A stretch of DNA of 64,000 bases. It comes from Terracoccus sp. 273MFTsu3.1 (lineage in GTDB: Bacteria; Actinomycetota; Actinomycetes; Actinomycetales; Dermatophilaceae). A program made the translations under genes and the position numbers. The stretch is taken from assembly GCF_000383675.1 (NCBI RefSeq), contig NZ_KB911821.1:186001-250000 (forward strand), given 5' to 3'. The notes below the pieces were generated by a model. That model saw only the letters and a program-made list of their open reading frames with translations, ran no database searches and was not told where the DNA came from. Positions 23,887 through 56,037 of this stretch are shown in pieces. Numbering within the stretch: position 1 is the first letter of the stretch; every line of letters begins with the position of its first letter.

Positions 23887-24576
23887 ATGGGATTCCTCGA
23901 CAAGCTCCTGGGCCGTGAGCCCCTCCAGCAGCAGCAGCGGGCCCAGCAGCCGCCCACGGGGGCGCCGTATGCCGTCCCGCCGCCGCGCGGAGGCGCGTCG
24001 TCCGAGGACGAGCGGGCCATCGCCCGCTACAAGTACCTCCTGCGCACCGCGCCGCCGGAGGACATCGAGAAGGTGCACACCGAGGCCTTCGCGAAGCTCT
24101 CCCCCGAGCAGCGCCAGATGGTCCTCCAGCGCCTCAACGAGGACCTCCCCGAGGGTGAGCGCCCGCGCAGCGACCAGCCGGCTGACCTCGCCCGCAGTGC
24201 GACCCGCGCCGAGATGAGCCGTCCCGGCTACCTCCAGGGCGCCTTCGGCGGGGGTCGAGGCGGCATGGGCGGCGGCATGGGCATGGGTGGCATGATCGCG
24301 GGCTCGATGCTCGGCACGATCGCCGGCGTCGTCGTCGGATCGGCGCTCGCCGACATGATGCTCGGGGGCTACGACTCCTCACCCGAGGCCCAGGAGGCCG
24401 GCGACGCGAACGCCGACGCCGGTGACACGGGCGATGCCGGTGGCGATGCGGGCGACGGTGGCGACACGGGCGATGCCGGTGGCGACGCAGGGGGCTCGGA
24501 CTTCGGCGACTTCGGTGGCGGGGGCGACTTCGGGGGTGGCGACTTCGGCGGCGGTGGGGACTTCGGGGGTTTCTGA
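23887..24576 (+). CDS. Hypothetical protein with Gly/Asp-rich C-terminal tail
   Basis: A 229-residue protein of unknown function. It opens MGFLDKLLGREP followed by a Gln/Pro stretch, then a charged helical region (residues about 40-100). Next comes a Met/Gly-rich hydrophobic segment GMIAGSMLGTIAGVVVGSALADMMLGG (about 138-164) that could enter a membrane. The last 60 residues are a repetitive Gly/Asp/Ala tail (GDTGDAGGDAGDGG...) ending in GDFGG repeats. Similar Gly/Phe tails occur in some bacterial membrane-associated proteins. GAAGGAGAAG is a strong ribosome site before the ATG at 23887. It has its own terminator. Confidence 0.72.
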   Translation: MGFLDKLLGREPLQQQQRAQQPPTGAPYAVPPPRGGASSEDERAIARYKYLLRTAPPEDIEKVHTEAFAKLSPEQRQMVLQRLNEDLPEGERPRSDQPADLARSATRAEMSRPGYLQGAFGGGRGGMGGGMGMGGMIAGSMLGTIAGVVVGSALADMMLGGYDSSPEAQEAGDANADAGDTGDAGGDAGDGGDTGDAGGDAGGSDFGDFGGGGDFGGGDFGGGGDFGGF

Positions 24577-24608
24577 CCACTCCGTAGCCGGGATCGCCAC
24601 GCGGCATT

Positions 24609-24649
24609 CGGTTCCCGTGGTCCACGACGCGTTCGTGGCCACGGAACCG
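24609..24649 (+). terminator. Long compound hairpin terminator
   Basis: CGGTTCCcGTGG (24609-24620) pairs with CCACGGAACCG (24639-24649) with one bulged base. An inner stem CCACGA/TCGTGG encloses a 5-nt loop, giving about 17 pairs in total. It lies 33 bases after the Gly/Asp-rich gene. A second 7-bp hairpin, CACCGGC/GCCGGTG, follows at 24669-24687. Confidence 0.75.
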
Positions 24650-24762
24650 GTCGCCCCGAGCAGCTGCGCACCGGCCCTCCGCCGGTGTCGGTTTCGTCCA
24701 AGACGGGGGCGGTCGGCACGAGCGATGCTGGCCGCTCACCGTCACCGACGAAAGGGACCACG

Positions 24763-25134
24763 ATGGCCATCGCCGCCCTCAAGATGCTCACCCTCGACAG
24801 CTCGGACGCGCGCCGCGACGCCGCGTTCTGGTCGGCCGTGCTCGGCTGGGAGGTCGCGCACGCGCAGGACGAGTACGCGATGCTCGCCGGCCCCGGTGGC
24901 CTGGCCCTGGGCCTCGGCCTCGTCGAGGACCACGAGCCGCCGGCGTGGCCGAACGATCGCGGCACCAAGCAGTTCCATCTCGACCTCGCGGTCGACGACC
25001 TCGACGCGGCGGCCGCGGAGTGCGTGACGGCCGGCGCGACGCTGCCCGACGAGCAGCCCGGCGAGACGTGGCGGGTGCTGCTCGACCCGAGCGGTCACCC
25101 CTTCTGTCTCACGCAAGCCGCCAACTGGGCCTGA
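24763..25134 (+). CDS. VOC (glyoxalase/bleomycin-resistance fold) family protein
   Basis: A 123-residue protein with two beta-alpha-beta-beta-beta modules of the vicinal-oxygen-chelate fold. Markers are KMLTLDSSDARRDAAFWSAVLGWEV at the start and KQFHLDLAVDDLDAAAAECVTAGA plus LLDPSGHPFCL at the end. This glyoxalase-like group is usually of unknown substrate. AAAGGGA precedes the ATG at 24763 as a ribosome site. Nine bases after its stop begins the first array of 22-bp repeats. Confidence 0.85.
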   Translation: MAIAALKMLTLDSSDARRDAAFWSAVLGWEVAHAQDEYAMLAGPGGLALGLGLVEDHEPPAWPNDRGTKQFHLDLAVDDLDAAAAECVTAGATLPDEQPGETWRVLLDPSGHPFCLTQAANWA

Positions 25135-25142
25135 CCCCCACC

Positions 25143-25333
25143 CACTCGAGTGAGCGCGTAACCACACTCGAGTGAGCGCCCAAGCACACTCGAGTGAGCG
25201 CGTACTCCCACTCGAGTGAGCGCGTACTCCCACTCGAGTGAGCGCGTACTCCCACTCGAGTGAGCGCGTACTCCCACTCGAGTGAGCGCGTGCTCCCACT
25301 CGAGTGAGCGCGTGCTCCCAATCAAGGAGCACG
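25143..25333 (+). repeat. Array A: tandem 22-bp repeats, motif CACTCGAGTGAGCGC + 7 variable bases
   Basis: Eight intact units have their ACTCGAGT core at 25144, 25166, 25188, 25210, 25232, 25254, 25276 and 25298, exactly 22 bases apart. A decayed ninth is at 25320. The invariant 15 bases contain the perfect 10-bp palindrome CACTCGAGTG. The 7-base linkers vary: GTAACCA, CCAAGCA, GTACTCC (four times), GTGCTCC (twice). It starts nine bases after the VOC stop and reads in that gene's sense direction. Since 22 is not a multiple of 3, the TGA in each unit falls in a different frame in successive units. Function unknown. Confidence 0.93.
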
Positions 25334-25356
25334 AGACCCGCCAGCGTGTGACGGGG

Positions 25357-25393
25357 CGCTCACTCGACTGGGACGGGGCGATCACTCGAGTGG
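25357..25393 (-). repeat. Array A, inverted part: two 22-bp units after the AEC gene
   Basis: Two units on the opposite strand (cores at 25362, variant CACTCGACTG, and 25384) are 22 bases apart. They lie 12 bases beyond the stop of the minus-strand AEC transporter gene and read in that gene's sense direction. Arrays from the two convergent genes therefore face each other across about 24 bases of unrelated sequence. Confidence 0.85.
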
Positions 25394-25404
25394 GCCGCCG
25401 GGCG

Positions 25405-26343
25405 TCAGACGCCGACGAGCCAGTGGAAGAGGGCGGCGATCCCGAGGATCACAGGGACCGACGCGAAGGTGCTGACGAAGATGACGTCGCGGGCGAGGTT
25501 CACCTCGCGCCGGTAGCGGACGGCATACGTGAAGATGTTCTGCGCCGTCGGCAGGGCCGCGGTCACGACCACGGCGAAGAGCGCCTCGCCCCGCAGCCCG
25601 AGCGCCAGGCCGACGCCGAGCGCGATGGCCGGCATGAGCAGGGTCTTGAGGACGACGATCGTCCACACGTGCTCGGCGGTCCGGTCCGTCGCCGGGCGCG
25701 GTCCGCGCCGCAGCGAGATGCCGAACGCGACGAGCATCGACGGCACGGCCATGGCGCCGAGCAGGTCGATGGGCGCCGCGATGACGCGTGGGAGGTGGAT
25801 GTCGAAGACGGCGATGAGCAGGCCGGCCACCGCCCCGAGGGTGATCGGGTTGCTGAACATCCGGCGCAGGCTGCGGCCGAGCGTCGGCGGCTCGCCACGG
25901 GCGTCGCTGTCGAAAAGCGCCATGTAGACCGGCGTGATGATGAGCAGCTGCATGAGCAGCGTCGGCGCGACCCACGCGACGTCGCCGAGGACGTAGAGCG
26001 CGATCGGGATGCCGAGGTTGCCCGCATTGACGTATGCCGCCGAGAGGCTGCCGATGAGCCGAGACCCGAGCGTGCCTCCCGCCCAACGGAACCGGGCGAT
26101 GAGCAGGTAGAGGCCGACCACGATCGCAAAGCTGATGAGCGACGTGACGAGGTTGGCCGACAGGACGGCGTCGAGCGAGGTGCGCTGCATGACGGTGAGG
26201 AGCAGCGCCGGCGAGGCGACGTGGAAGGCGAGGCGCGAGAGGTTGACCTGGGCGGAGTCGTCGAGCACGCGGCGGTCGGCCAGGAGCCAGCCGACCGCGA
26301 CGATGATCGCGATCGTCGCGAATCCCTCGAGCACGCCGACCAT
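25405..26343 (-). CDS. AEC (auxin efflux carrier) family transporter
   Basis: A 312-residue membrane protein with about ten helices in two five-helix halves. It starts MVGVLEGFATIAIIVAVGWLLA and ends VILGIAALFHWLVGV. SAAYVNAGNLGIPIALYVLG is the conserved Asn/Gly helix break of the first half in the AEC/malate-permease family. Members export or import small organic anions; the substrate here is unknown. The start at 26343 follows the family N-terminus; the frame upstream is Arg/Ser-rich noise. It is divergent from the LOG-family gene and convergent with the VOC gene across array A. Confidence 0.85.
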   Translation of the reverse strand: MVGVLEGFATIAIIVAVGWLLADRRVLDDSAQVNLSRLAFHVASPALLLTVMQRTSLDAVLSANLVTSLISFAIVVGLYLLIARFRWAGGTLGSRLIGSLSAAYVNAGNLGIPIALYVLGDVAWVAPTLLMQLLIITPVYMALFDSDARGEPPTLGRSLRRMFSNPITLGAVAGLLIAVFDIHLPRVIAAPIDLLGAMAVPSMLVAFGISLRRGPRPATDRTAEHVWTIVVLKTLLMPAIALGVGLALGLRGEALFAVVVTAALPTAQNIFTYAVRYRREVNLARDVIFVSTFASVPVILGIAALFHWLVGV

Positions 26344-26425
26344 GCCGCCGATCCTGTCAGCCACGGACCACGCGACGTCGCCCGGGTCCGTTCCTCGGCC
26401 ACCCGGCCGGGGCAGGATGGGGCGC

Positions 26426-27538
26426 ATGGAGATCGAGACGCTCGACGAGCTGGACGACCACCTCGCCTCCGACGGACCGCTGCGCGGCCTGCGGCTCCAG
26501 GACCTCGACCTCACCGGCTACGGCGACCGCCTCGCGGCCCACGGCGACCTGACCGGCCTGGTCGTGCTCGGGGGCACGGTGCCGGTCCCGGTGGCCGAGG
26601 TGCTGCTGACCCGGGGCGCCATCCTCTTCCCGGGCGTCGCCGACGCCCCGGTCGACCCGTGGCGCGGCCTCTACTTCGCGGCCGACCTCTACGCCGGTCT
26701 CGAGCACGGCTACGCGGCGACGCCCGACGCGAGGGCCTACGCGTGGTTCGTCGACGCGCGGCTGCGCACCGACGCGTACGCCACCCTCGTCCGCGCGATC
26801 CACGACGACTCGGTGACGGACGAGCTCGACGAGTTCGTCCAGGGCCGATCGGTCGTCGGGATCATGGGCGGCCATGCGCTGCAACGGGACTCGGCGGCGT
26901 ACGCCGGTGCGGCAGGATTGGGGCACGCGCTCGCCGAGGAGGGACACCTCGTCGCGACCGGCGGCGGGCCGGGGGCGATGGAGGCGGCCAACCTCGGCGC
27001 GCTGTGCCGGAGCGCAGCCGCCGTCGAGGAGACCGTCGGTCGCATCGCGCACGTGCCCGGCTTCCGACCCGACGTGACGGCCTGGGCCACGACGGCCCTC
27101 GCCGCACGGCACGTCGTCGTCGGGGACGAGCCCCAGGCGCCGTCCGAGACGCTGGGCCCGTCAGCCCGGTCGCTCGGCATCCCGACGTGGTTCTACGGCC
27201 ACGAGCCGCCCAACGTCTTCTGCGACGTCATCGCGAAGTACTTCTCCAACGCGATCCGCGAGGAGGGCCTGCTCGCCCGGTCGAACGGCGGCATCGTCGT
27301 GCTCGACGGTGCGGCCGGCACGGTGCAGGAGATCTTCCAGGCCGTGACGCCGCTCTACTACGCGCCCGAGGGGGCGCCGCTGCCACCGCTCGTCCTCGTC
27401 GGACGCGAGCACTGGACCGAGCGCGTGCCGGTCTGGCCGGCACTGCGCGCCATCGCCGCCGGTCGCCCGATGGAGGAGGCCGTCCACCTCGTCGACTCGA
27501 TCGACGAGGTCCTCCCCCTGCTCCCCCCGATCCCCTGA
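26426..27538 (+). CDS. LOG-family (lysine decarboxylase-like) Rossmann protein
   Basis: A 370-residue protein whose middle holds a LOG-type Rossmann fold: VVGIMGGHALQRDS, then TGGGPGAMEAANLGA, resembling the GGGxxGxM nucleotide-binding motif. GGIVVLDGAAGTVQEIFQ corresponds to the catalytic PGGxGTxxE motif in diverged form, with DGAAGTVQE. True LOG enzymes release cytokinin-like bases from nucleotides. The divergence and an extra N-terminal 150 residues make the substrate uncertain. It is preceded by a short divergent gap and followed by a 23-bp imperfect hairpin. Confidence 0.75.
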   Translation: MEIETLDELDDHLASDGPLRGLRLQDLDLTGYGDRLAAHGDLTGLVVLGGTVPVPVAEVLLTRGAILFPGVADAPVDPWRGLYFAADLYAGLEHGYAATPDARAYAWFVDARLRTDAYATLVRAIHDDSVTDELDEFVQGRSVVGIMGGHALQRDSAAYAGAAGLGHALAEEGHLVATGGGPGAMEAANLGALCRSAAAVEETVGRIAHVPGFRPDVTAWATTALAARHVVVGDEPQAPSETLGPSARSLGIPTWFYGHEPPNVFCDVIAKYFSNAIREEGLLARSNGGIVVLDGAAGTVQEIFQAVTPLYYAPEGAPLPPLVLVGREHWTERVPVWPALRAIAAGRPMEEAVHLVDSIDEVLPLLPPIP

Positions 27539-30964: not shown

Positions 30965-31990
30965 ATGTGCAAAGATCTGGCCATGACCGCTGCGCTCGCG
31001 CGACCGCACCGCGTCGCCGTCCTCGCCCTCGACGGCGTCGTGGCCTTCGAGCTCGGGCTGCCGCACCGCTTCTTCAGCGCGAGCGCCCTCGACCCCGGCT
31101 GGCCCGGTCGACTCACCGGCGCTCCCCCGCTCTACGAGGTGTCGATGTGCACGCTCGACGACGGACCCGTCATGACGTCGGCCGGCTATGCCGCGCTGCC
31201 GACGCACCCGAACTCCGTTGTCGCGCAGGCTGACACAGTCGTCATTCCCGGCATCACGAACTCCGCCATCGTCACGCGGGGCGAGCTGCCCGCCGACCTC
31301 GTCGCGCTCGCCGGCACGGCTCGCCCCGACGCGCGGTGGCTCTCGATCTGCACGGGGGCCTTCGTCCTCGCGGGCCTCGGCAAGCTCGACGGGCGCGAGG
31401 CGACGACCCACTGGGTCTACGAGGACCTCTTCCGCCGTCACTTCCCCGACGTCCACCTCGACCCCGACGTGCTCTACGTCGACCACGGCGACGTCCTCAC
31501 CTCCGCCGGCAACGCCGCCGGCATCGACCTGCTGTTGCACGTGCTGCGCGCCGACCTCGGCACCGAGGCGGCGAACCGGGTCGCCCGTGGCGCCGTCGTC
31601 GCGCCGTGGCGGGCGGGCGGGCAGGCCCAGTTCATCGAGCGGCCCGTCCCCGACGCGTCCGACGGCGGCACGGGGGCGACGCGGTCGTGGGCCCTCGAGC
31701 ACCTCGACGAGCCGATCGGCCTGACCGACCTGGCCCGGCACGCCGGGACGAGCGTGCGCACCTTCACCCGGCGCTTCCGCGAGGAGACGGGCGAGACGGC
31801 GGGGACCTGGCTCGCGAGGGCTCGCGTCGACCGCGCTCGGCACCTGCTCGAGACGACCGACCTGCCCGTGGACAGGGTGGCCGCCGCGGCCGGCTTCGGC
31901 ACGAGCGCCTCGCTGCGCCAGCACCTCGCGGCCGCCGTGGGGCTCTCGCCCCTCGCCTACCGTCGCACCTACCGGGCAGAGCCCGCCTGA
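30965..31990 (+). CDS. GlxA-type transcriptional regulator (DJ-1/PfpI + AraC HTH)
   Basis: A 341-residue regulator. Residues about 10-190 form a DJ-1/PfpI-like glutamine-amidotransferase-type domain with ARWLSICTGAFVLAGLGKLDGREATTHW, carrying the Cys and the downstream His. The C-terminal 100 residues are an AraC-type double helix-turn-helix (TDLARHAGTSVRTFTRRFREETGETAGTWLARARV...). GGAAGGA four bases before the ATG at 30965 supports that start; another in-frame ATG lies six codons downstream. It is divergent from the MFS-prpE pair (54-bp gap) and is a plausible regulator of it. Confidence 0.87.
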   Translation: MCKDLAMTAALARPHRVAVLALDGVVAFELGLPHRFFSASALDPGWPGRLTGAPPLYEVSMCTLDDGPVMTSAGYAALPTHPNSVVAQADTVVIPGITNSAIVTRGELPADLVALAGTARPDARWLSICTGAFVLAGLGKLDGREATTHWVYEDLFRRHFPDVHLDPDVLYVDHGDVLTSAGNAAGIDLLLHVLRADLGTEAANRVARGAVVAPWRAGGQAQFIERPVPDASDGGTGATRSWALEHLDEPIGLTDLARHAGTSVRTFTRRFREETGETAGTWLARARVDRARHLLETTDLPVDRVAAAAGFGTSASLRQHLAAAVGLSPLAYRRTYRAEPA

Positions 31991-32061
31991 CCGTCCGCGC
32001 CGGCCGGGCCGGAGGCCCCGGCAACGACCGCGCCAGCCGCGCCGGCGACCTCGGCCACGCC

Positions 32062-32106
32062 CACGCCGGCAGGGCCCACGCCGGCTGGGCCCACGCCGGC
32101 CGGGCC
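32062..32106. repeat. Three tandem 15-bp repeats
   Basis: CACGCCGGCNGGGCC occurs three times in a row (32062, 32077, 32092), differing only at one base (A, T, C). It lies in the 151-bp gap between the convergent GlxA-type regulator and the carboxyethylornithine-synthase-like gene. A CGGCATAC octamer follows at 32125. Possibly part of a terminator region; otherwise unexplained. Confidence 0.7.
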
Positions 32107-32141
32107 CGACCGGGCCGCAGCACGCGGCATACGGCCCCTCG

Positions 32142-49983: not shown

Positions 49984-50021
49984 TCCCGTGTCGGCACGTC
50001 CGTCGTGGCTACGCTCGGTCC

Positions 50022-51242
50022 ATGAGCTCGCCGCTGATCTCGCGCATGCAGCCCTTCGGGACGACGATCTTCGCCGAGATGTCGGCGCTCGCGACCCGGA
50101 CCGGTGCGATCAACCTCGGACAGGGCTTCCCCGACACGGACGGACCCCGGGAGATGCTCGAGGCGGCGAAGGCCGCGATCGACGGCGGTCGCAACCAGTA
50201 CCCGCCGGGGCCCGGGGTCCCGGAGCTGCTCGAGGCGGTCGCCGCGCACCAGGAGCGCTTCTACGGGATCTCGCTCGACCCCGCGTCGCAGGTGCTCGTC
50301 ACCGCCGGTGCGACCGAGGCGATCGCGTCGGTCGTCCTCGCGCTCTGCGACCCGGGCGACGAGGTCGTCACCTTCGAGCCCTACTACGACTCGTATGCCG
50401 CCACGATCGCCCTCGCGGGAGCGACCCGCCGCACGTCCGTGCTCCGCTTCCCCGACTTCGCGGTCGACGAGGCGTCGCTGCGGGCGGCCTTCTCGTCGCG
50501 GACCCGTCTCGTGCTGCTCAACACGCCGCACAACCCGACGGGGAAGGTCTTCACGCGGCCCGAGCTCGACCTCATCGCGTCGCTCGCGCGCGAGCACGAC
50601 GCCTGGGTCGTCACCGACGAGGTCTACGAGCACCTCGTCTTCGACGACGCCGAGCACGTGCCGATGGCGACCCTGCCGGGCATGGCCGACCGCACCCTCA
50701 CGATCAGCTCCGGCGGCAAGACGTTCTCGGCCACGGGCTGGAAGGTCGGCTGGCTCTCGGGTCCCGCCGAGGCGGTCGCGGCGGCGCGCACCGTCAAGCA
50801 GTTCCTCACCTACGTCGCGTCCGGGCCGTTCCAGCCGGCCGTCGCTCTCGCCCTCGGGCTCGGCGACGAGGTGTACGCCGGCCTGCGGGACTCGCTCCAG
50901 GCCAAGCGAGACCTGCTGTGCTCGGCGCTCGAGGCGTCCGGGCTCCGGGTCGCCCGCCCGTCCGGCACGTACTTCGTCATCGCGGACGCGGCACCGCTCG
51001 GCGCCGTCGACGGGCTGGAGTTCGCCCGGCGGCTGCCGGACCTGGCCGGGGTGGTCGGGGTGCCGGTGTCCGTCTTCCACGACGACCAGGAGGCGGCGCG
51101 CACGTTGGTGCGGTTCGCCTTCTGCAAGAAGGACGAGGTCCTGCTCGAGGCCAGCCGCCGCCTCGCCGCCGCCGGCATCCCGACCTCCCCGACCTCCCCG
51201 ACCTCCCCGACCTCCCCGACCGCACCCTCCACCACCCCCTGA
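50022..51242 (+). CDS. Class I aminotransferase, probably N-succinyldiaminopimelate/kynurenine type (DapC-like)
   Basis: A 406-residue PLP enzyme of fold type I. TGAINLGQGFPDTDGPREML opens the domain as in DapC/kynurenine aminotransferases. The PLP-contact is VTAGATEAIASVV, Asn is in TPHNPTGKVF, the Asp-Glu in VTDEVYEHLVFDD, and the Schiff-base lysine is in SSGGKTFSATGWKVGW. Mycobacterial Rv0858c (DapC) is of this type; lysine/DAP synthesis is the best guess but other keto-acid partners are possible. The last 18 residues are a (SPT)n run encoded by a 9-bp tandem repeat, and array B follows the stop directly. Confidence 0.87.
   Translation: MSSPLISRMQPFGTTIFAEMSALATRTGAINLGQGFPDTDGPREMLEAAKAAIDGGRNQYPPGPGVPELLEAVAAHQERFYGISLDPASQVLVTAGATEAIASVVLALCDPGDEVVTFEPYYDSYAATIALAGATRRTSVLRFPDFAVDEASLRAAFSSRTRLVLLNTPHNPTGKVFTRPELDLIASLAREHDAWVVTDEVYEHLVFDDAEHVPMATLPGMADRTLTISSGGKTFSATGWKVGWLSGPAEAVAAARTVKQFLTYVASGPFQPAVALALGLGDEVYAGLRDSLQAKRDLLCSALEASGLRVARPSGTYFVIADAAPLGAVDGLEFARRLPDLAGVVGVPVSVFHDDQEAARTLVRFAFCKKDEVLLEASRRLAAAGIPTSPTSPTSPTSPTAPSTTP
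51181..51216 (+). repeat. Four tandem 9-bp repeats in the 3' end of the aminotransferase gene
   Basis: CGACCTCCC is repeated four times exactly (51181, 51190, 51199, 51208), encoding Ser-Pro-Thr triplets at the protein C-terminus. Being a multiple of three, copy-number changes would keep the frame. It lies 25 bases before array B. Confidence 0.9.
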
Positions 51243-51243
51243 C

Positions 51244-51310
51244 CCATCGAGTGAGCGCGCAATCACACTCGAGTGAGCGCTCCGTCCCACTCGAGTGAGC
51301 GCTCGGTCCC
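51244..51310 (+). repeat. Array B: three 22-bp units of the CACTCGAGTGAGCGC motif
   Basis: Units have their TCGAG at 51247 (first unit has lost a base: CCATCGAGTGAGCGC), 51269 and 51291, exactly 22 apart. Linkers are GCAATCA, TCCGTCC and TCGGTCC. A decayed fourth may start at 51311. The array begins immediately after the aminotransferase TGA (51240-51242) and reads in its sense direction, as in array A. Confidence 0.9.
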
Positions 51311-51421
51311 ACATCCACACGGCCCGTTCGCCGTCCACATGTCTTCGGGAGACGCGCCCCTTCATCCACAGGTGCGCTGACACACGTGCTGTCCCGGCCG
51401 AACCCGGACGACGATGAGGCC

Positions 51422-51961
51422 ATGTCGATCGGTTCAGCCCTGCTCAGCGCCGTCCTCGCGGCGGCATCCCTGACGAGTGCGAGCTCGGTGTCCGTCACGT
51501 CCGGGACACCGGGCTCCGCTCGCGGACCCTTCTCCTCACCGGCGACGTCGGCCCACTGGGCATGGCCGCTCGACCCACGCCCGGAGGTGGTGCGGCGGTT
51601 CGACCCTCCGGACCAGCCGTGGCTACCCGGCCATCGCGGTGTCGACCTGGCCGCCACTGTGGGCCAGTCCGTCAGGGCCCCGACAGCGGGTCGGATCGCC
51701 TGGACCGGCGTCATCGCCGGGCGTGCGGTCGTCGTCGTGGCGCACGACGGAGGACTGCGGAGCACCTTCGAGCCGGCGGCCGCGGCCGCACCAGCCGGCA
51801 CGACGGTCGCTCGCGGAGACAGGGTCGGCATCGTGACGTCGACCCCGGGACACTGTGCGCCGCGCACTTGCCTGCACTGGGGCGTGCTGAGGGGTGAGTC
51901 CTACCTCGATCCGCTGTCGTTCGTGGGTCGAGCGCCGGTCGTCCTGCTCCCGCTCTCGTAG
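51422..51961 (+). CDS. M23-family (LytM-type) secreted peptidase
   Basis: A 179-residue protein. An Ala/Ser-rich hydrophobic N-terminus (about residues 5-25) is a probable signal peptide. The LytM/M23 domain starts about residue 60. Zinc ligands are seen in PGHRGVDLAA (HxxxD) and, later, CLHWGVLRG (HxG form of the usual HxH motif is replaced by HWG, with a single His). AHDGGLRSTFEP corresponds to the HNGxxSxY region. It cuts or binds peptidoglycan cross-bridges, or is inactive if the metal site is incomplete. It is convergent with xerC; in actinobacteria an M23 gene often lies near rpsB. Confidence 0.83.
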   Translation: MSIGSALLSAVLAAASLTSASSVSVTSGTPGSARGPFSSPATSAHWAWPLDPRPEVVRRFDPPDQPWLPGHRGVDLAATVGQSVRAPTAGRIAWTGVIAGRAVVVVAHDGGLRSTFEPAAAAAPAGTTVARGDRVGIVTSTPGHCAPRTCLHWGVLRGESYLDPLSFVGRAPVVLLPLS

Positions 51962-51978
51962 CGCCGCCGACCCGCCGG

Positions 51979-52917
51979 TCACGCCCGCGGGTGGGCCTGC
52001 TCGTAGCTGCGCCGCAGCCGGTCGACGGAGACGTGCGTGTAGATCTGCGTCGTTGCGAGACTCGCGTGGCCGAGGATCTCCTGCACCATGCGGAGGTCCG
52101 CGCCACCCTCCAGCAGGTGCGTGGCGGCGCTGTGTCGCAGCCCGTGCGGACCCAGGTCCGGCGCGTCAGGCAGATGCGAGAGCAGCTCGTGCACGGCAGA
52201 CCGGACCTGCCGGGCATCCACCCGGCGACCGCGTCGCCCCAGGAAGAGCGCAGGTCCGGAGTGCTCACCGACGAGCCGGGACCGGACCGCCAGCCACGCC
52301 TCGATGGCGCGGCCCGCCGGCGCGCCGAACGGCACGATCCGCTCCTTGGCACCCTTGCCCATGACGCGCACGACACCTTGCGCCAGATCGAGGTCGTCGA
52401 TGTCGAGCGCGGCGAGCTCCCCCACCCGGATGCCGCTCGCGTACAACAGCTCGAGCATGGCGCGGTCGCGCACGTGGATCGGGTCCTCGTCGTCGGCTCG
52501 GGTGGCGGCGAGGTCGAGCATCTCGCTGGCCTCGTCCTGACGAAGGACGCCCGGAAGCGTGGCATGCCGCTTGGGTGCGACGAGGCGTAGGGACGGATCG
52601 GTGGGGATGCGACCGGTGTGCTCGGCCCACCGGAGGAAGGTGCGTGCGGAGGCGGCGCGGCGCGCGATCGTCGCCCGGGCGGCGCCCGCGTCGGCCTGGA
52701 CCCCGAGCCACGCCCGGAGGTCACCGATGCGCAGGTCGCCGATCTCGTCGATCCCGCGGGCAGCGGCGAAGGTCAGCAGGTGTCGGACGTCCCCGAGGTA
52801 GGCCCGTCGGGTGTGGACCGAACGCCCTCGCTCGGCGCCGAGGTGACGGGAGTACGCGTGGAGCAGCTCCGAGTGCCGCTCGAGCACGTCTGGTACCGCC
52901 TTGACCACATCCGTCAC
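51979..52917 (-). CDS. xerC: Tyrosine recombinase XerC
   Basis: A 312-residue tyrosine recombinase. The N-terminal SAM-like core-binding domain spans about 1-100 ([34 protein letters not shown]). Catalytic residues: Arg in [11 protein letters not shown], His-x-x-Arg in [15 protein letters not shown], His in [14 protein letters not shown] with the Tyr nucleophile in that last motif. Length fits chromosome-dimer-resolving XerC. GTG start at 52917. It lies downstream of dprA as usual, but the gap is occupied by array C. No dif site was recognised here. Confidence 0.93.
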
Positions 52918-53061
52918 TCCCGCACCATCGCAAAGCGCGGAGGGTTAGGCAAGTACTGCTCCGACACCAGCCATGACGCCGACACGACGAAGACGGCTCC
53001 CAGCTCGGGTGGCCGCGGGGGCTCGCCCGTCTCCGACTCAAGTGGGACGCGAGTGACGGCG

Positions 53062-53312
53062 AGGCCACTCGAGTAGGACGGAGCGCTTGTTCGACTGGGA
53101 CCGAGCGCTCACTCGAGTGGGACCGCGCGCTCACTCGAGTGGGGCGGGGCGTTCACTCGAGTGGGACCGCGCGCTCACTCGAGTGGGACCGCGCGCTCGT
53201 TCGAGTGGGACGGGGCGCTCACTCGAGTGGGGCGGGGCGCTCACTCGAGTGGGGCGGGGCGCTCACTCGAGTGGGCGGAGCGCTCACTCGAGTGGGCGGA
53301 GCGCTTGCTCGG
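53062..53312 (-). repeat. Array C: about twelve 22-bp units overlapping the dprA 3' end
   Basis: The plus strand shows GCGCTCACTCGAGTG, i.e. CACTCGAGTGAGCGC on dprA's strand. The motif's TCGAG T falls at 53069, 53091, 53113, 53135, 53157, 53179, 53201, 53223, 53245 and 53267 (22 apart), then 53288 and a decayed 53309 (21 apart). Linkers vary (GGACCGC, GGGCGGG, GGACGGG, GGCGGA). A decayed copy is also at about 53036. The last two units lie in dprA; the TGA of one unit (53284-53286) is its stop codon. The array fills the gap to xerC. Confidence 0.93.
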
Positions 53313-54450
53313 GCTTGGCTCGGCGGGGCTGGGGGCGTTTGCGCCAGGTGCCGGCGGACTCGGTCACGAGGCCCATCCGCTCGAGTCGTCCGAGCGCCGC
53401 CCGCACCATGAGCGGCGCGAGGGCGACCTGGCGGACGATGGCGTCGAGGGTCAGTCCGGATCGGAAGGGCACGACCTCGAGGACGGACGCATCGAGGGGC
53501 GGCAGGTCGTCTTCGGGCCGGACGGGCCCACGGGCCGGCCCGCACGCGTCGTCGCCGAGGTCGCCCACGAGGTCGATGACCTCGTCGGCACTCGTGACGA
53601 GGACCGCCCGGCCGTCGCGGATCTCCTGGTGACAGCCGGCCGACGTCATCGACGTCGTCGGACCGGGCACGGCGCCGACGTGGCGGCCGGCCTCGATCGC
53701 GTGCTTGACGGTGTTGCGCGAGCCGGAGCGCAGGTCGGCCTCGACCACGACCGTGCCGCGCGTCATCCCGGCGATGAGCCGGTTGCGGGCGAGGAACCGT
53801 GACTTCATCGGCGCCGACCCGGGGGCCACCTCCGACACGACGAGTCCGTCGCGGGCGATCCGCGAGATGAGGGTGGCATGCGCCGAGGGGTAGGGCCGCT
53901 CCACCCCTCCGGCGAGGACGGCGACCGTGGCACCGTCGACGGCGAGCGCACCGCGGTGGGCGCTGCCGTCGATGCCGAACGCGGCGCCGGACACGACGGT
54001 CCATCCCCTCCGTGCGACGCCGGCCGCGAGGTCGGCGGCGACCTGCTCGCCGTAGCCGGTGGCGGCCCGTGAGCCGACGATCGCGACGGACCGCTCCACC
54101 GTCTCGGCGAGATCGAGCGGTCCGCGGACCCAGAGGCAGTAGGGCGGTACGGGGATCTGCCCGAGCCGTTCCGGCCACTCGTCGTCGCCGGGCACGACGA
54201 CCCGCGCGCCGACTTTCGCCGCGATGTCGAGGTCGCGCTCGGTGTCGAGGCTGGCGAGCCGGGCCCGGAACCGGGTCAACGTGCCCCGACCAGCCCGGAT
54301 GCGCTCGAACGTCTCGACGGCGCCGAGCTCGTCGATGAGGCCGGGCACCTCCTTGTCGCACGGCTCCGCGAGACGCGACAGCGCGGCTCGGGCGAACCGG
54401 TCAGCGTCCACGACGGACCCCCGCCATCGAGCCCATCCGACCGTGAGCAT
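53284..54450 (-). CDS. dprA: DNA-processing protein DprA
   Basis: DprA (Smf), 388 residues, binds incoming single-stranded DNA and loads RecA during natural transformation. The Rossmann-like domain is recognisable by SVAIVGSRAATGYGEQVAADLAAG (about 123-146), VVSGAAFGIDGSAHRGAL, then VVEADLRSGSRNTVKHAIEAGR. A winged-helix-like C-terminal region follows (LTLDAIVRQVALAPLMVRAALGRLERMG). The final residues PEQALRPLE come from repeat array C, whose TGA terminates the gene. comM lies just upstream. DprA is present in many non-competent bacteria too. Confidence 0.95.
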   Translation of the reverse strand: MLTVGWARWRGSVVDADRFARAALSRLAEPCDKEVPGLIDELGAVETFERIRAGRGTLTRFRARLASLDTERDLDIAAKVGARVVVPGDDEWPERLGQIPVPPYCLWVRGPLDLAETVERSVAIVGSRAATGYGEQVAADLAAGVARRGWTVVSGAAFGIDGSAHRGALAVDGATVAVLAGGVERPYPSAHATLISRIARDGLVVSEVAPGSAPMKSRFLARNRLIAGMTRGTVVVEADLRSGSRNTVKHAIEAGRHVGAVPGPTTSMTSAGCHQEIRDGRAVLVTSADEVIDLVGDLGDDACGPARGPVRPEDDLPPLDASVLEVVPFRSGLTLDAIVRQVALAPLMVRAALGRLERMGLVTESAGTWRKRPQPRRAKPEQALRPLE

Positions 54451-54474
54451 GCCGACGATGCCGTCCTCGCGCGT

Positions 54475-56037
54475 TCACGCGGCCACCCCCGCCCGGTGGC
54501 GCAGCGACAGAGCGAGGTCGACCTCCTCACGCCCGGGGCGTTGGAGCCCCATGACGTCGGCGATGGTCCACGCACAGCGCAGGGTGCGGTCATAGCCGCG
54601 CAGGCTGAGCGACCCGCTCTCGAGGGCGCGGTCGAGAGTGGTCGTCGCCGAGCTCGGGAGCCGCCACGGCCGACCGCGCAGGACCGAGCCCGGGACGTCG
54701 GCGTTGACCCCGCGACGGCGCTCGAGCACCTCGCGCCAGCGCTCGCCCTGGGCATCGCGGGCCCCGGCCACGCGCGCGGCGACCGACGTCGTGGACTCGC
54801 CCGCGGGTGCACCCGCCATCGACAGTCCCGGCGGCTGGACGTGGACCTGCAGGTCGACCCGGTCGAGGAGCGGACCGCTCAGCTTGCCGAAGTAGGAGCG
54901 GCGCATGAGGGGCGTGCACGTGCAGTCGAGACCCTTGCCCCACCCGTTGCCGCACGGGCACGGGTTCGCGGCGAGGACGAGCTGGAAGCGGGACGGGAAC
55001 GTCACAGTCTCCTGGGCGCGGGCGATGGAGACGGACCCGCGCTCGAGCGGCGTGCGCAGCGACTGCAGGACCCCCTTGTCGAACTCGGGGGTCTCGTCGA
55101 GGAACAGCACGCCCCGGTGGGCCTGGGTGATGGCTCCGGGCCGGATGTGCCCGCTGCCACCACCGATGACGGCGGCCTGTGACGCACCGTGGTGCGGCGC
55201 GACGAACGGCGGTCTCGTGATGAGGCGCACGTCCTCACCGGCGCCGAGCGCACCCAGGACGGAGTGGATCGCCGTGACCTCCATCGACTCGGCCTCGTCG
55301 AGGGCCGGCAGCAGACCCGGCAGCCGTTCGGCGAGCATCGTCTTGCCCGCACCGGGTGGACCGGCGAGCAGCAGGTGGTGACCGCCGGCCGCCGCGATCT
55401 CGAGGGCGAGCTTGGCGTCGGCCTGGCCGACGACCTCGCTGAGGTCCCGCACCGGCTCGGGAGCCGGCGGCACGACGAGCGGCACCGGGACCTCCTCGAC
55501 GGCCCGGCCCCTCCCCAGCGCGTCGTAGCGCCGGACGAGCTCGGTCACGTCGGCCACGGGGTGGACTCGGACGTCCGAGACGAGACGGGCCTCGCCGGCG
55601 TTGGCGACGGGGACGACGACGTGACGCACCCCGGTCATCGCGGCCGCCCGGACCAGGGGCAGCACGCCGGGGACGGGCCGCACCGTGCCGTCGAGACCCA
55701 CCTCGCCGATGTGCACGAGGTCGCGCACGACCGCGGGTGGCACCAGTCGCATCGCGGCGGCGACCGCGACGAAGATGGCCAGGTCGAAGCCGGTGCCGAT
55801 CTTGCGCTCACCAGCGGGCGAGAGGTTGACGGTGACGCGACGCTGGCTGACGGGCATGTCGTCGATGAGGGCGGCAGCGGCCTTGATTCGGTCGGACGAC
55901 TGCTTGACCGCCGAGTCCCCGAGCCCGCTGATCGCGAAGCCGGGCAGGCCGGGCGTCACGTGCGCCTCGACGTCGACGACGAACCCGTGCACCCCACGCA
56001 GCCCGACCGACCGCGTGCGACCGAGGCCGGTGCCCAT
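54475..56037 (-). CDS. comM: Mg-chelatase-like AAA+ ATPase ComM/YifB
   Basis: ComM (YifB), 520 residues, a hexameric AAA+ helicase that promotes branch migration during transformation. The N-terminal Lon-like fold is RSVGLRGVHGFVVDVEAHVTPGLPGFAISGLGDSAVKQS. Walker A is GPPGAGKT (about 212), Walker B LFLDETPEF. PCPCGNGWGKGLDCTC is a conserved Cys cluster. Start ATG at 56037 overlaps the yraN stop by one base, and dprA follows within 25 bases: yraN-comM-dprA is one operon. Confidence 0.95.
   Translation of the reverse strand: MGTGLGRTRSVGLRGVHGFVVDVEAHVTPGLPGFAISGLGDSAVKQSSDRIKAAAALIDDMPVSQRRVTVNLSPAGERKIGTGFDLAIFVAVAAAMRLVPPAVVRDLVHIGEVGLDGTVRPVPGVLPLVRAAAMTGVRHVVVPVANAGEARLVSDVRVHPVADVTELVRRYDALGRGRAVEEVPVPLVVPPAPEPVRDLSEVVGQADAKLALEIAAAGGHHLLLAGPPGAGKTMLAERLPGLLPALDEAESMEVTAIHSVLGALGAGEDVRLITRPPFVAPHHGASQAAVIGGGSGHIRPGAITQAHRGVLFLDETPEFDKGVLQSLRTPLERGSVSIARAQETVTFPSRFQLVLAANPCPCGNGWGKGLDCTCTPLMRRSYFGKLSGPLLDRVDLQVHVQPPGLSMAGAPAGESTTSVAARVAGARDAQGERWREVLERRRGVNADVPGSVLRGRPWRLPSSATTTLDRALESGSLSLRGYDRTLRCAWTIADVMGLQRPGREEVDLALSLRHRAGVAA

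What the first reader, a model, noticed from the sequence alone, without database searches (positions are those of the whole stretch)
25143..25333. Stop-codon-linked 22-bp repeat array after the VOC gene
Eight perfect units of CACTCGAGTGAGCGC plus a variable 7-base linker start nine bases after a stop codon and point with the gene. The core CACTCGAGTG is a perfect palindrome, repeated at two helical turns, so a dimeric protein could bind every unit on one face. I know of no named element with this form. It may be a 3'-end RNA/termination element, a nucleoid or segregation binding array, or an expanding satellite. That each unit carries TGA in a shifting frame is also seen directly.
Basis: partly seen in the sequence, partly recalled or inferred. 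Interest (0 to 1): 0.78.

Follow-up and report, generated by a model that had tools for sequence, protein, structure and literature searches.

The report
Gene-end hairpin repeats with multiplied arms
The array is one of dozens of copies of a small two-armed hairpin repeat that sits where bacterial genes end; in this bacterium the arms of the hairpin have been multiplied into neat 22-base arrays, which makes it an unusual cousin, in kind, of the REP/BIME repeats known from other bacteria.

Summary
Eight perfect 22-bp units (25143-25311) follow the VOC stop; two inverted units (25356-25392) face them beside the stop of the converging gene. It belongs to a dispersed family: 107 exact 15-mers in the own genome. 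I examined 75 arrays, 33 own and 42 from congeners, picked by exact or near-exact units; 44 have both arms, 42 of these as (+)n-spacer-(-)m. They sit at gene 3' ends: 31 convergent, 40 tandem, 1 divergent, 3 unresolved. One-armed arrays between tandem genes are 12 sense, 8 antisense, so direction is not gene-bound. The perfect palindrome is not kept (third base C 212, G 104 of 318). Single-hairpin forms with other inner stems occur in 5 of 53 genera of the family, Terrabacter included. Distances between facing arms cluster about 10 bp apart, by helical constraint or shared founders. Closest kind: REP/BIME repeats; but no Y1 (RAYT) transposase domain in 18 genomes, and head-to-tail arms are unusual. 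Best guess: a two-way gene-end hairpin (terminator or insulator). Function untested.

The parts
25143..25318 (+). plus arm: eight exact 22-bp units (15-mer core plus 7-base linker), starting on the ninth base after the VOC stop
25312..25355 (.). 44-base stretch between the cores of the two arms (includes the last linker of each arm)
25356..25392 (-). minus arm: two inverted units, one mismatch each, 12 bases before the stop of the converging gene
24763..25134 (+). VOC/glyoxalase-like gene upstream (PF18029)
25405..26427 (-). converging membrane transport protein gene (PF03547)
51244..51302 (+). second array of the family: three units in one arm, one base after the stop of the gene ending at 51242
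50022..51242 (+). aminotransferase class I/II gene (PF00155) before the second array
53105..53294 (-). third array of the family: nine units in one arm; degenerate units go on to about 53055
53284..54411 (-). dprA (PF02481); its stop codon at 53284-53286 is the TGA of the first unit of the third array

Best explanation
A dispersed gene-end hairpin repeat of the REP/BIME kind, found in several genera of one actinobacterial family. Its ground form is one inverted pair of about 22-bp arms (TCGAGTGAGCGC plus an inner stem that differs between genera) around a short centre, lying mostly just after stop codons. Shown here by sequence: dispersal, gene-end position, two-armed anatomy, presence or absence at the same site in sister species, multiplied arms, classes of arm distance. 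Inferred: (a) the 22-bp arrays grew by tandem duplication of one arm unit (slippage or unequal exchange); (b) in the cell the element works in both directions at transcript ends, as a hairpin terminator or 3'-end stabiliser without a U-tract, and so insulates converging or following genes; (c) a DNA-level action may add to it; (d) the unit's TGA serves as stop codon where a gene runs into it.
For: 107 exact 15-mers in the own genome, 0 for the reversed pattern. Of 75 arrays 31 convergent, 40 tandem, 1 divergent, 3 unresolved, against 66, 276 and 65 of 407 gaps in a 464-kb sample (binomial 7e-8 for convergent, 5e-5 for divergent, but orthologous arrays of sister species are counted apart). Distance to flanking gene 3' ends: median 14 bp, 75 of 99 within 30 bp; to 5' ends: median 61, 7 of 39 within 30 bp (69 of 75 arrays used). 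42 of 44 two-armed arrays run + then -. Same site in sister species: at the VOC site ten units in G000, one inverted pair (left arm degenerate) in G004, three units in G003, none marked in G008, G002 and G006. Inverted pairs with other inner stems in other genera. RNA of 25135-25404 folds at -159.9 kcal/mol, z -10.25. REPs lie at gene ends and can supply a stop codon (PMC3733652, sections 14 and 15 read).
Against: No T-run terminator in the two stretches scanned. Innermost linkers of facing arms match no better within an element than between elements (3.21 of 7 mismatches against 3.09, permutation p 0.81, 42 elements), so long pairing is not kept by compensating change inside the genus. One-armed arrays exist (31 of 75) and 8 of 20 between tandem genes run antisense. 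Only 2 of 57 convergent gaps of the 464-kb sample carry the core, so it is not the general terminator. In other genera 3 of 22 clusters lie in gaps called divergent and 3 overlap a called gene. No RNA data were available.
Confidence: 0.5

Rival explanations
1. Helically phased DNA-binding array: a protein (or gyrase, as at BIME-2) binds the units on one face of the DNA at 22-bp steps and in phase across facing arms, and blocks RNA polymerase or drains supercoils between genes. RNA hairpins would then be a by-product.
For: Unit step 22 bp in 135 of 137 (G000) and 55 of 58 (congeners) neighbouring pairs. Centre distances of facing arms: 44-46, 53-54 and 62-66 only, n = 27, best period 9.6, 0 of 2000 random sets as regular, 0 of 20000 at 10.5 bp. 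Second arm type, n = 29, weaker: 15 of 20000 at 10.5 bp. Linkers keep length but not sequence. BIME-2 binds gyrase (PMC2817692, passages seen).
Against: Central parts of elements of one distance class are more alike than shuffles in three of four classes (pairs above the 95% null: 9 of 36, 32 of 105, 2 of 15, 25 of 28), so a few founders could give the classes. The fit is best at 9.2-9.7, not 10.5. The random sets take lengths as independent. In other genera centre distances are near 55-56 (60-bp elements), 54, 63 and 65. No candidate protein was found or looked for.
Confidence: 0.2
2. Selfish or neutral repeat: a small hairpin element that spreads to gene ends because insertion elsewhere is harmful, with arrays grown by slippage; no gain for the cell.
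For: Copy number varies from 0 to 107 exact 15-mers among nine congeners; sites are occupied in some species and not in others; sequence types turn over between species. In T. tumescens (G008) whole hairpins, not arms, are tandemly repeated (213354-213619).
Against: Gene-end position is strong; arms stay inverted in 42 of 44; inner stems change on both sides between genera. No transposase was found, but only the Y1 family was searched. Purifying selection against insertion in genes and promoters could also give the position.
Confidence: 0.23
3. Stop-codon back-up array: each unit brings TGA, and the 22-bp step puts it in all three frames to catch read-through ribosomes.
For: TGA in every exact unit; 22 = 1 mod 3; a unit's TGA is the stop of the flanking gene, as called, in 10 of 103 gene 3' ends.
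Against: Antisense one-armed arrays (8 of 20) give the flanking gene no TGA from the core; other genera have single hairpins; does not explain the inverted arm.
Confidence: 0.03

Closest known systems
REP / BIME repeats (PMC3733652: outline with abstract, passages, sections 6, 14 and 15 read; PMC2817692: start of abstract and passages seen)
   Same: Short, GC-rich, dispersed, extragenic; next to gene 3' ends in convergent and tandem gaps; inverted pairs; paired copies often of two variants (heterodimers); can supply the stop codon; fast turnover between species.
   Different: No Y1 (RAYT-type) transposase domain in 18 genomes tested; head-to-tail 22-bp arms dominate, while the paper calls head-to-tail dimers negligible for CGTC repeats; distances between arms fall in classes; a single unit is not itself a 20-40 bp palindrome; actinobacterial, a group not mentioned in the text of either paper by that name (word search).
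CGTC-tagged REPs (PMC3733652, section 6 read)
   Same: No dedicated transposase known; CGTC and CCA occur at the linker end of many units (positions 18-22 of the unit profile).
   Different: Stem of 8-9 bp with A/T at its foot, loop 4-5, tag unpaired: not seen here; the paper's consensus is in a figure I could not read.
Factor-independent transcription terminators between convergent genes (general knowledge)
   Same: GC-rich hairpin between two stop codons, two-way.
   Different: No T-run in the stretches scanned; one sequence shared by dozens of loci; multiplied arms.

Membership tests
REP/BIME repeats | many dispersed extragenic copies per genome | tested here: met
   107 exact 15-mers, about 36 places; 37 of 38 copies of the 10-mer core outside called genes in 464 kb
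REP/BIME repeats | next to gene 3' ends, rare between divergent genes | tested here: met
   31 convergent, 40 tandem, 1 divergent, 3 unresolved of 75
REP/BIME repeats | copies in inverted pairs | tested here: met
   44 of 75 arrays two-armed, 42 of 44 as + then -
REP/BIME repeats | the single unit is a 20-40 bp imperfect palindrome that folds by itself | tested here: not met
   only the 10-base core can be palindromic and its third base breaks it in 104 of 318 units; the hairpin is formed by two facing units
REP/BIME repeats | head-to-tail dimers negligible (stated for CGTC families) | tested here: not met
   190 neighbouring same-strand pairs at 22 bp (135 + 55) in 75 arrays
RAYT-mobilised (GTAG) REPs | RAYT transposase (Y1_Tnp, PF01797) in the genome | tested here: not met
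   0 of 9 congeners and 0 of 9 genomes of other genera at E 0.001; the 14-genome control rings in 5
CGTC-tagged REPs | unpaired CGTC tag at the foot of an 8-9 bp stem, CCA tail | tested here: inconclusive
   CGTC is the commonest linker end but paired in many elements; the consensus figure was not readable
U-tract terminator | hairpin followed by a T-run | tested here: not met
   0 found in 24400-26500 and in 50000-54500; other loci not scanned
Rfam families | match at gathering score | tested here: not met
   0 in the 64-kb window
Gyrase-binding BIME-2 | binds and is cut by DNA gyrase | not testable with these tools
   none

The most novel reading that the evidence does not exclude
A gene-end array bound in helical phase by a dedicated protein: units every two turns, facing arms kept whole turns apart, acting as a two-way barrier to RNA polymerase or to supercoils between genes, with arms lengthened or shortened by tandem duplication to tune its strength.
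Probability: 0.17. Interest if true: 0.75.

Novelty: new variant of a known kind. Interest (0 to 1): 0.47.

Why it matters
It would extend REP/BIME-like gene-end repeats to an actinobacterial family without the Y1-type transposase domain tied to the classic ones, and it offers a natural series at one site (no element, one hairpin, multiplied arms in sister species) in which termination, read-through and DNA topology can be measured. The distance classes make the question 'RNA hairpin or DNA-bound array' directly testable with insertions of 5 and 10 bp.

Tried and rejected
Segregation, uptake or origin array: not favoured, because copies are few (107 exact 15-mers in 4.9 Mb), clustered and bound to gene ends; no direct test made. 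A long hairpin kept by compensating change inside the genus: not supported. Orientation bound to the gene: not supported (12 sense, 8 antisense, counted by me from the rows). RAYT transposition: no PF01797; other transposases were not searched. L075, called divergent, proved to have a missed hisI gene (PF01502) and was counted as tandem; L086 stays divergent and unclear.

Controls that were not clean: the reversed-pattern control is 0, but not (G000 36 and 61; G000 7, G008 5; G000 1, G001 2, G004 1). I think this is because the unit is near-palindromic and tandem, so the reversed pattern fits arrays too; I did not check it.

Rows dropped: one search used 69 of 75 arrays for distances (left out L075, L086, L087, L147, L149, L152); one search has 3 unresolved; the third-base comparison counted 29 of 44 two-armed arrays (18 own, 11 others), the other 15 being ties. 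For distances I kept 33 of the 43 forward matches, leaving out outer pairs and those with a recognisable further unit (two with a degenerate unit, at G000 C6:251927 and G003 C1:1822978, stayed in), then 27 after removing orthologues and tandem copies. Of 30 forward matches I used 29, not freed of relatives. Arrays were found through exact or near-exact units, so diverged ones are missed; listings are capped, so places beyond the cap were not seen. All gene borders come from my own codon-usage caller, which misses at least one gene.

In print: searched (0 papers); only listings seen, apart from the two papers named. No paper on this repeat was seen. The string search gave 152 papers; 10 were listed and none of their titles concerns actinobacteria; 142 were not looked at. 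The family name Dermatophilaceae (Intrasporangiaceae) is recalled, not from a call.

Full report
What is there. The array at 25143-25311 is as described: eight perfect 15-mers at a 22-bp step, starting on the ninth base after the stop of a VOC-like gene. Two further units lie inverted at 25356-25392, 12 bases before the stop of a converging membrane transport gene. The real object is therefore two-armed: (+)8, 44 bases between the cores, (-)2. Two one-armed relatives are in the window, 51244-51302 after an aminotransferase gene and 53105-53294 after dprA.

Genome and relatives. The own genome has 50 forward and 57 reverse exact 15-mers and none of the reversed control. In nine genomes of the genus (G000-G008) the exact counts are 107, 0, 2, 7, 43, 0, 0, 1 and 9. 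Contig lengths of G004, G003 and G008 equal those of Terrabacter sp. Root85, Terrabacter sp. Root181 and T. tumescens JCM 1365, so I infer that the genus is Terrabacter. In the named-genome scan for two cores at 21-23 bp, 20 of 30 stretches are Terrabacter, one Humibacillus, one Intrasporangium, and eight come from unrelated organisms.

Anatomy. I examined 75 clusters, 33 in G000 and 42 in congeners, found through exact or near-exact units. Forty-four have both arms, 42 of them as + then -. Neighbouring same-strand units step by 22 bp in 135 of 137 (G000) and 55 of 58 (others) cases. In 195 G000 units positions 4 to 15 are near-invariant, the third base is C in 130 and G in 64, and the linker keeps its length but little of its sequence. 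In two-armed arrays that are not tied (29 of 44) the third base tends to differ between the arms (Fisher 0.036 in G000, 0.015 in others; small numbers, some orthologues), which recalls the heterodimers of REPs (PMC3733652, section 14).

Position. 31 arrays lie between convergent genes, 40 between tandem genes, 1 in a gap called divergent and 3 are unresolved; the sampled background is 66, 276 and 65 of 407 gaps. Gene 3' ends are near (median 14 bp, 75 of 99 within 30 bp), gene 5' ends further (median 61 bp, 7 of 39 within 30 bp); of 39 arrays between tandem genes 31 are closer to the 3' end and 8 to the 5' end. A unit's TGA is the stop codon, as called, in 10 of 103 3' ends, dprA among them. 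One-armed arrays between tandem genes are 12 sense and 8 antisense (rows). So the element is bound to gene ends, not to the gene's direction.

Turnover. At the VOC site G004 has one inverted pair (left arm degenerate), G003 three units, and G008, G002 and G006 have none marked; G007 and G001 have other sequence downstream and G005 could not be read. At the dprA site units range from none marked (G001, G006) to nine (G000), and G005 has TCGAGAGAAC hairpins. A second arm type, TCGAGTGGCC, has 12 of 12 copies outside called genes in 200 kb of G008. TCGAGAGGCC has 5 of 5 outside called genes in 200 kb of G001. At the mrp gene end several species show other hairpin or tandem repeats to the eye.

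Family-wide form. Pairs TCGAGTGAGC...GCTCACTCGA occur in 11 of 186 genomes and 5 of 53 genera, own genus included, with 0 for the control in all listed rows. In G096 ten of the eleven read are 60 bp long, with 22-base arms alike at 20 to 22 positions and very different 16-base centres; in G109 six are 59-60 bp with another inner stem and arms alike at 17 to 21. Between genera the inner stem has changed on both sides while staying complementary. This favours the inverted pair as the working or mobile unit and the 22-bp arrays as a later growth of its arms. In these genera 3 of 22 clusters lie in gaps called divergent and 3 overlap a called gene, so the gene-end rule is looser there.

DNA or RNA. 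For RNA: strong fold (-159.9 kcal/mol, z -10.25), and paired change of inner stems between genera. Against strict pairing in the arrays: innermost linkers of facing arms match no better within than between elements (3.21 against 3.09 mismatches of 7, p 0.81). For DNA: centre distances of facing arms fall only at 44-46, 53-54 and 62-66 (n = 27 after removing relatives, search range 40-70, best period 9.6, 0 of 2000 random sets as regular, 0 of 20000 at 10.5 bp); the second arm type shows it more weakly (n = 29, relatives not removed, 15 of 20000 at 10.5 bp). Against reading this as helical constraint: the centres of three of four classes are more alike than shuffles, so a few founders may lie behind the classes, and a wider list holds loops of 63, 86, 99 and 106. 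I leave this open.

Verdict. In place and build it resembles REP/BIME repeats, but it fails two of their features as tested (self-folding single unit; head-to-tail copies negligible) and the Y1 transposase domain is absent from 18 of 18 genomes tested. I therefore call it a new variant of that kind, not a member of the RAYT-REP family. The likeliest action is a two-way gene-end hairpin; it is not the general terminator (2 of 57 convergent gaps in the sample), has no T-run and matches no Rfam family. Function is inference throughout.

Noticed in passing
own genome, 464-kb sample (window C2:186001-250000 plus 400 kb after it); samples of G006, G008, G001: The 9-mer CGGCATACG is very frequent: 142 copies in 464 kb of G000, 80 in 400 kb of G006, 75 in 200 kb of G008, 60 in 200 kb of G001. 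Inside called genes it is antisense about twice as often as sense in all four (59:25, 40:19, 34:13, 26:11). Meaning unknown.
   Followed up: partly
window 31995-32107: GC-rich tandem repeats of 33 and 15 bp fill the convergent gap between called genes ending at 31990 (+) and 32142 (-): another repeat at a gene end, unlike the 22-bp unit in its consensus.
   Followed up: no
L233-L247, gap after the mrp gene: The same gene end carries different repeats in different species: CGAACGCnGCGTTCG in G000, G004 and G008, TCGAGAGGCC hairpins in G036 and G058, a tandem repeat in G006, a 60-bp element in G096 (by eye). CGAACGCnGCGTTCG has 6 of 6 copies outside called genes in 464 kb of G000: perhaps a second family there.
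   Followed up: partly
window 53284-53320, end of dprA: The dprA reading frame ends in the first unit of its array, and the bases before it (CGAGCAAGCGC) look like a further, changed unit inside the coding tail; sister species end the gene at other units or before them.
   Followed up: partly
L087 (G000 C12:1-227) and G008 C4:213354-213619: Other ways of growing: units at the end of contig C12 repeat at 53-78 bp with part of the spacer, and in G008 whole hairpins repeat in tandem about 100 bp apart. The contig end in a repeat may be an assembly break.
   Followed up: no
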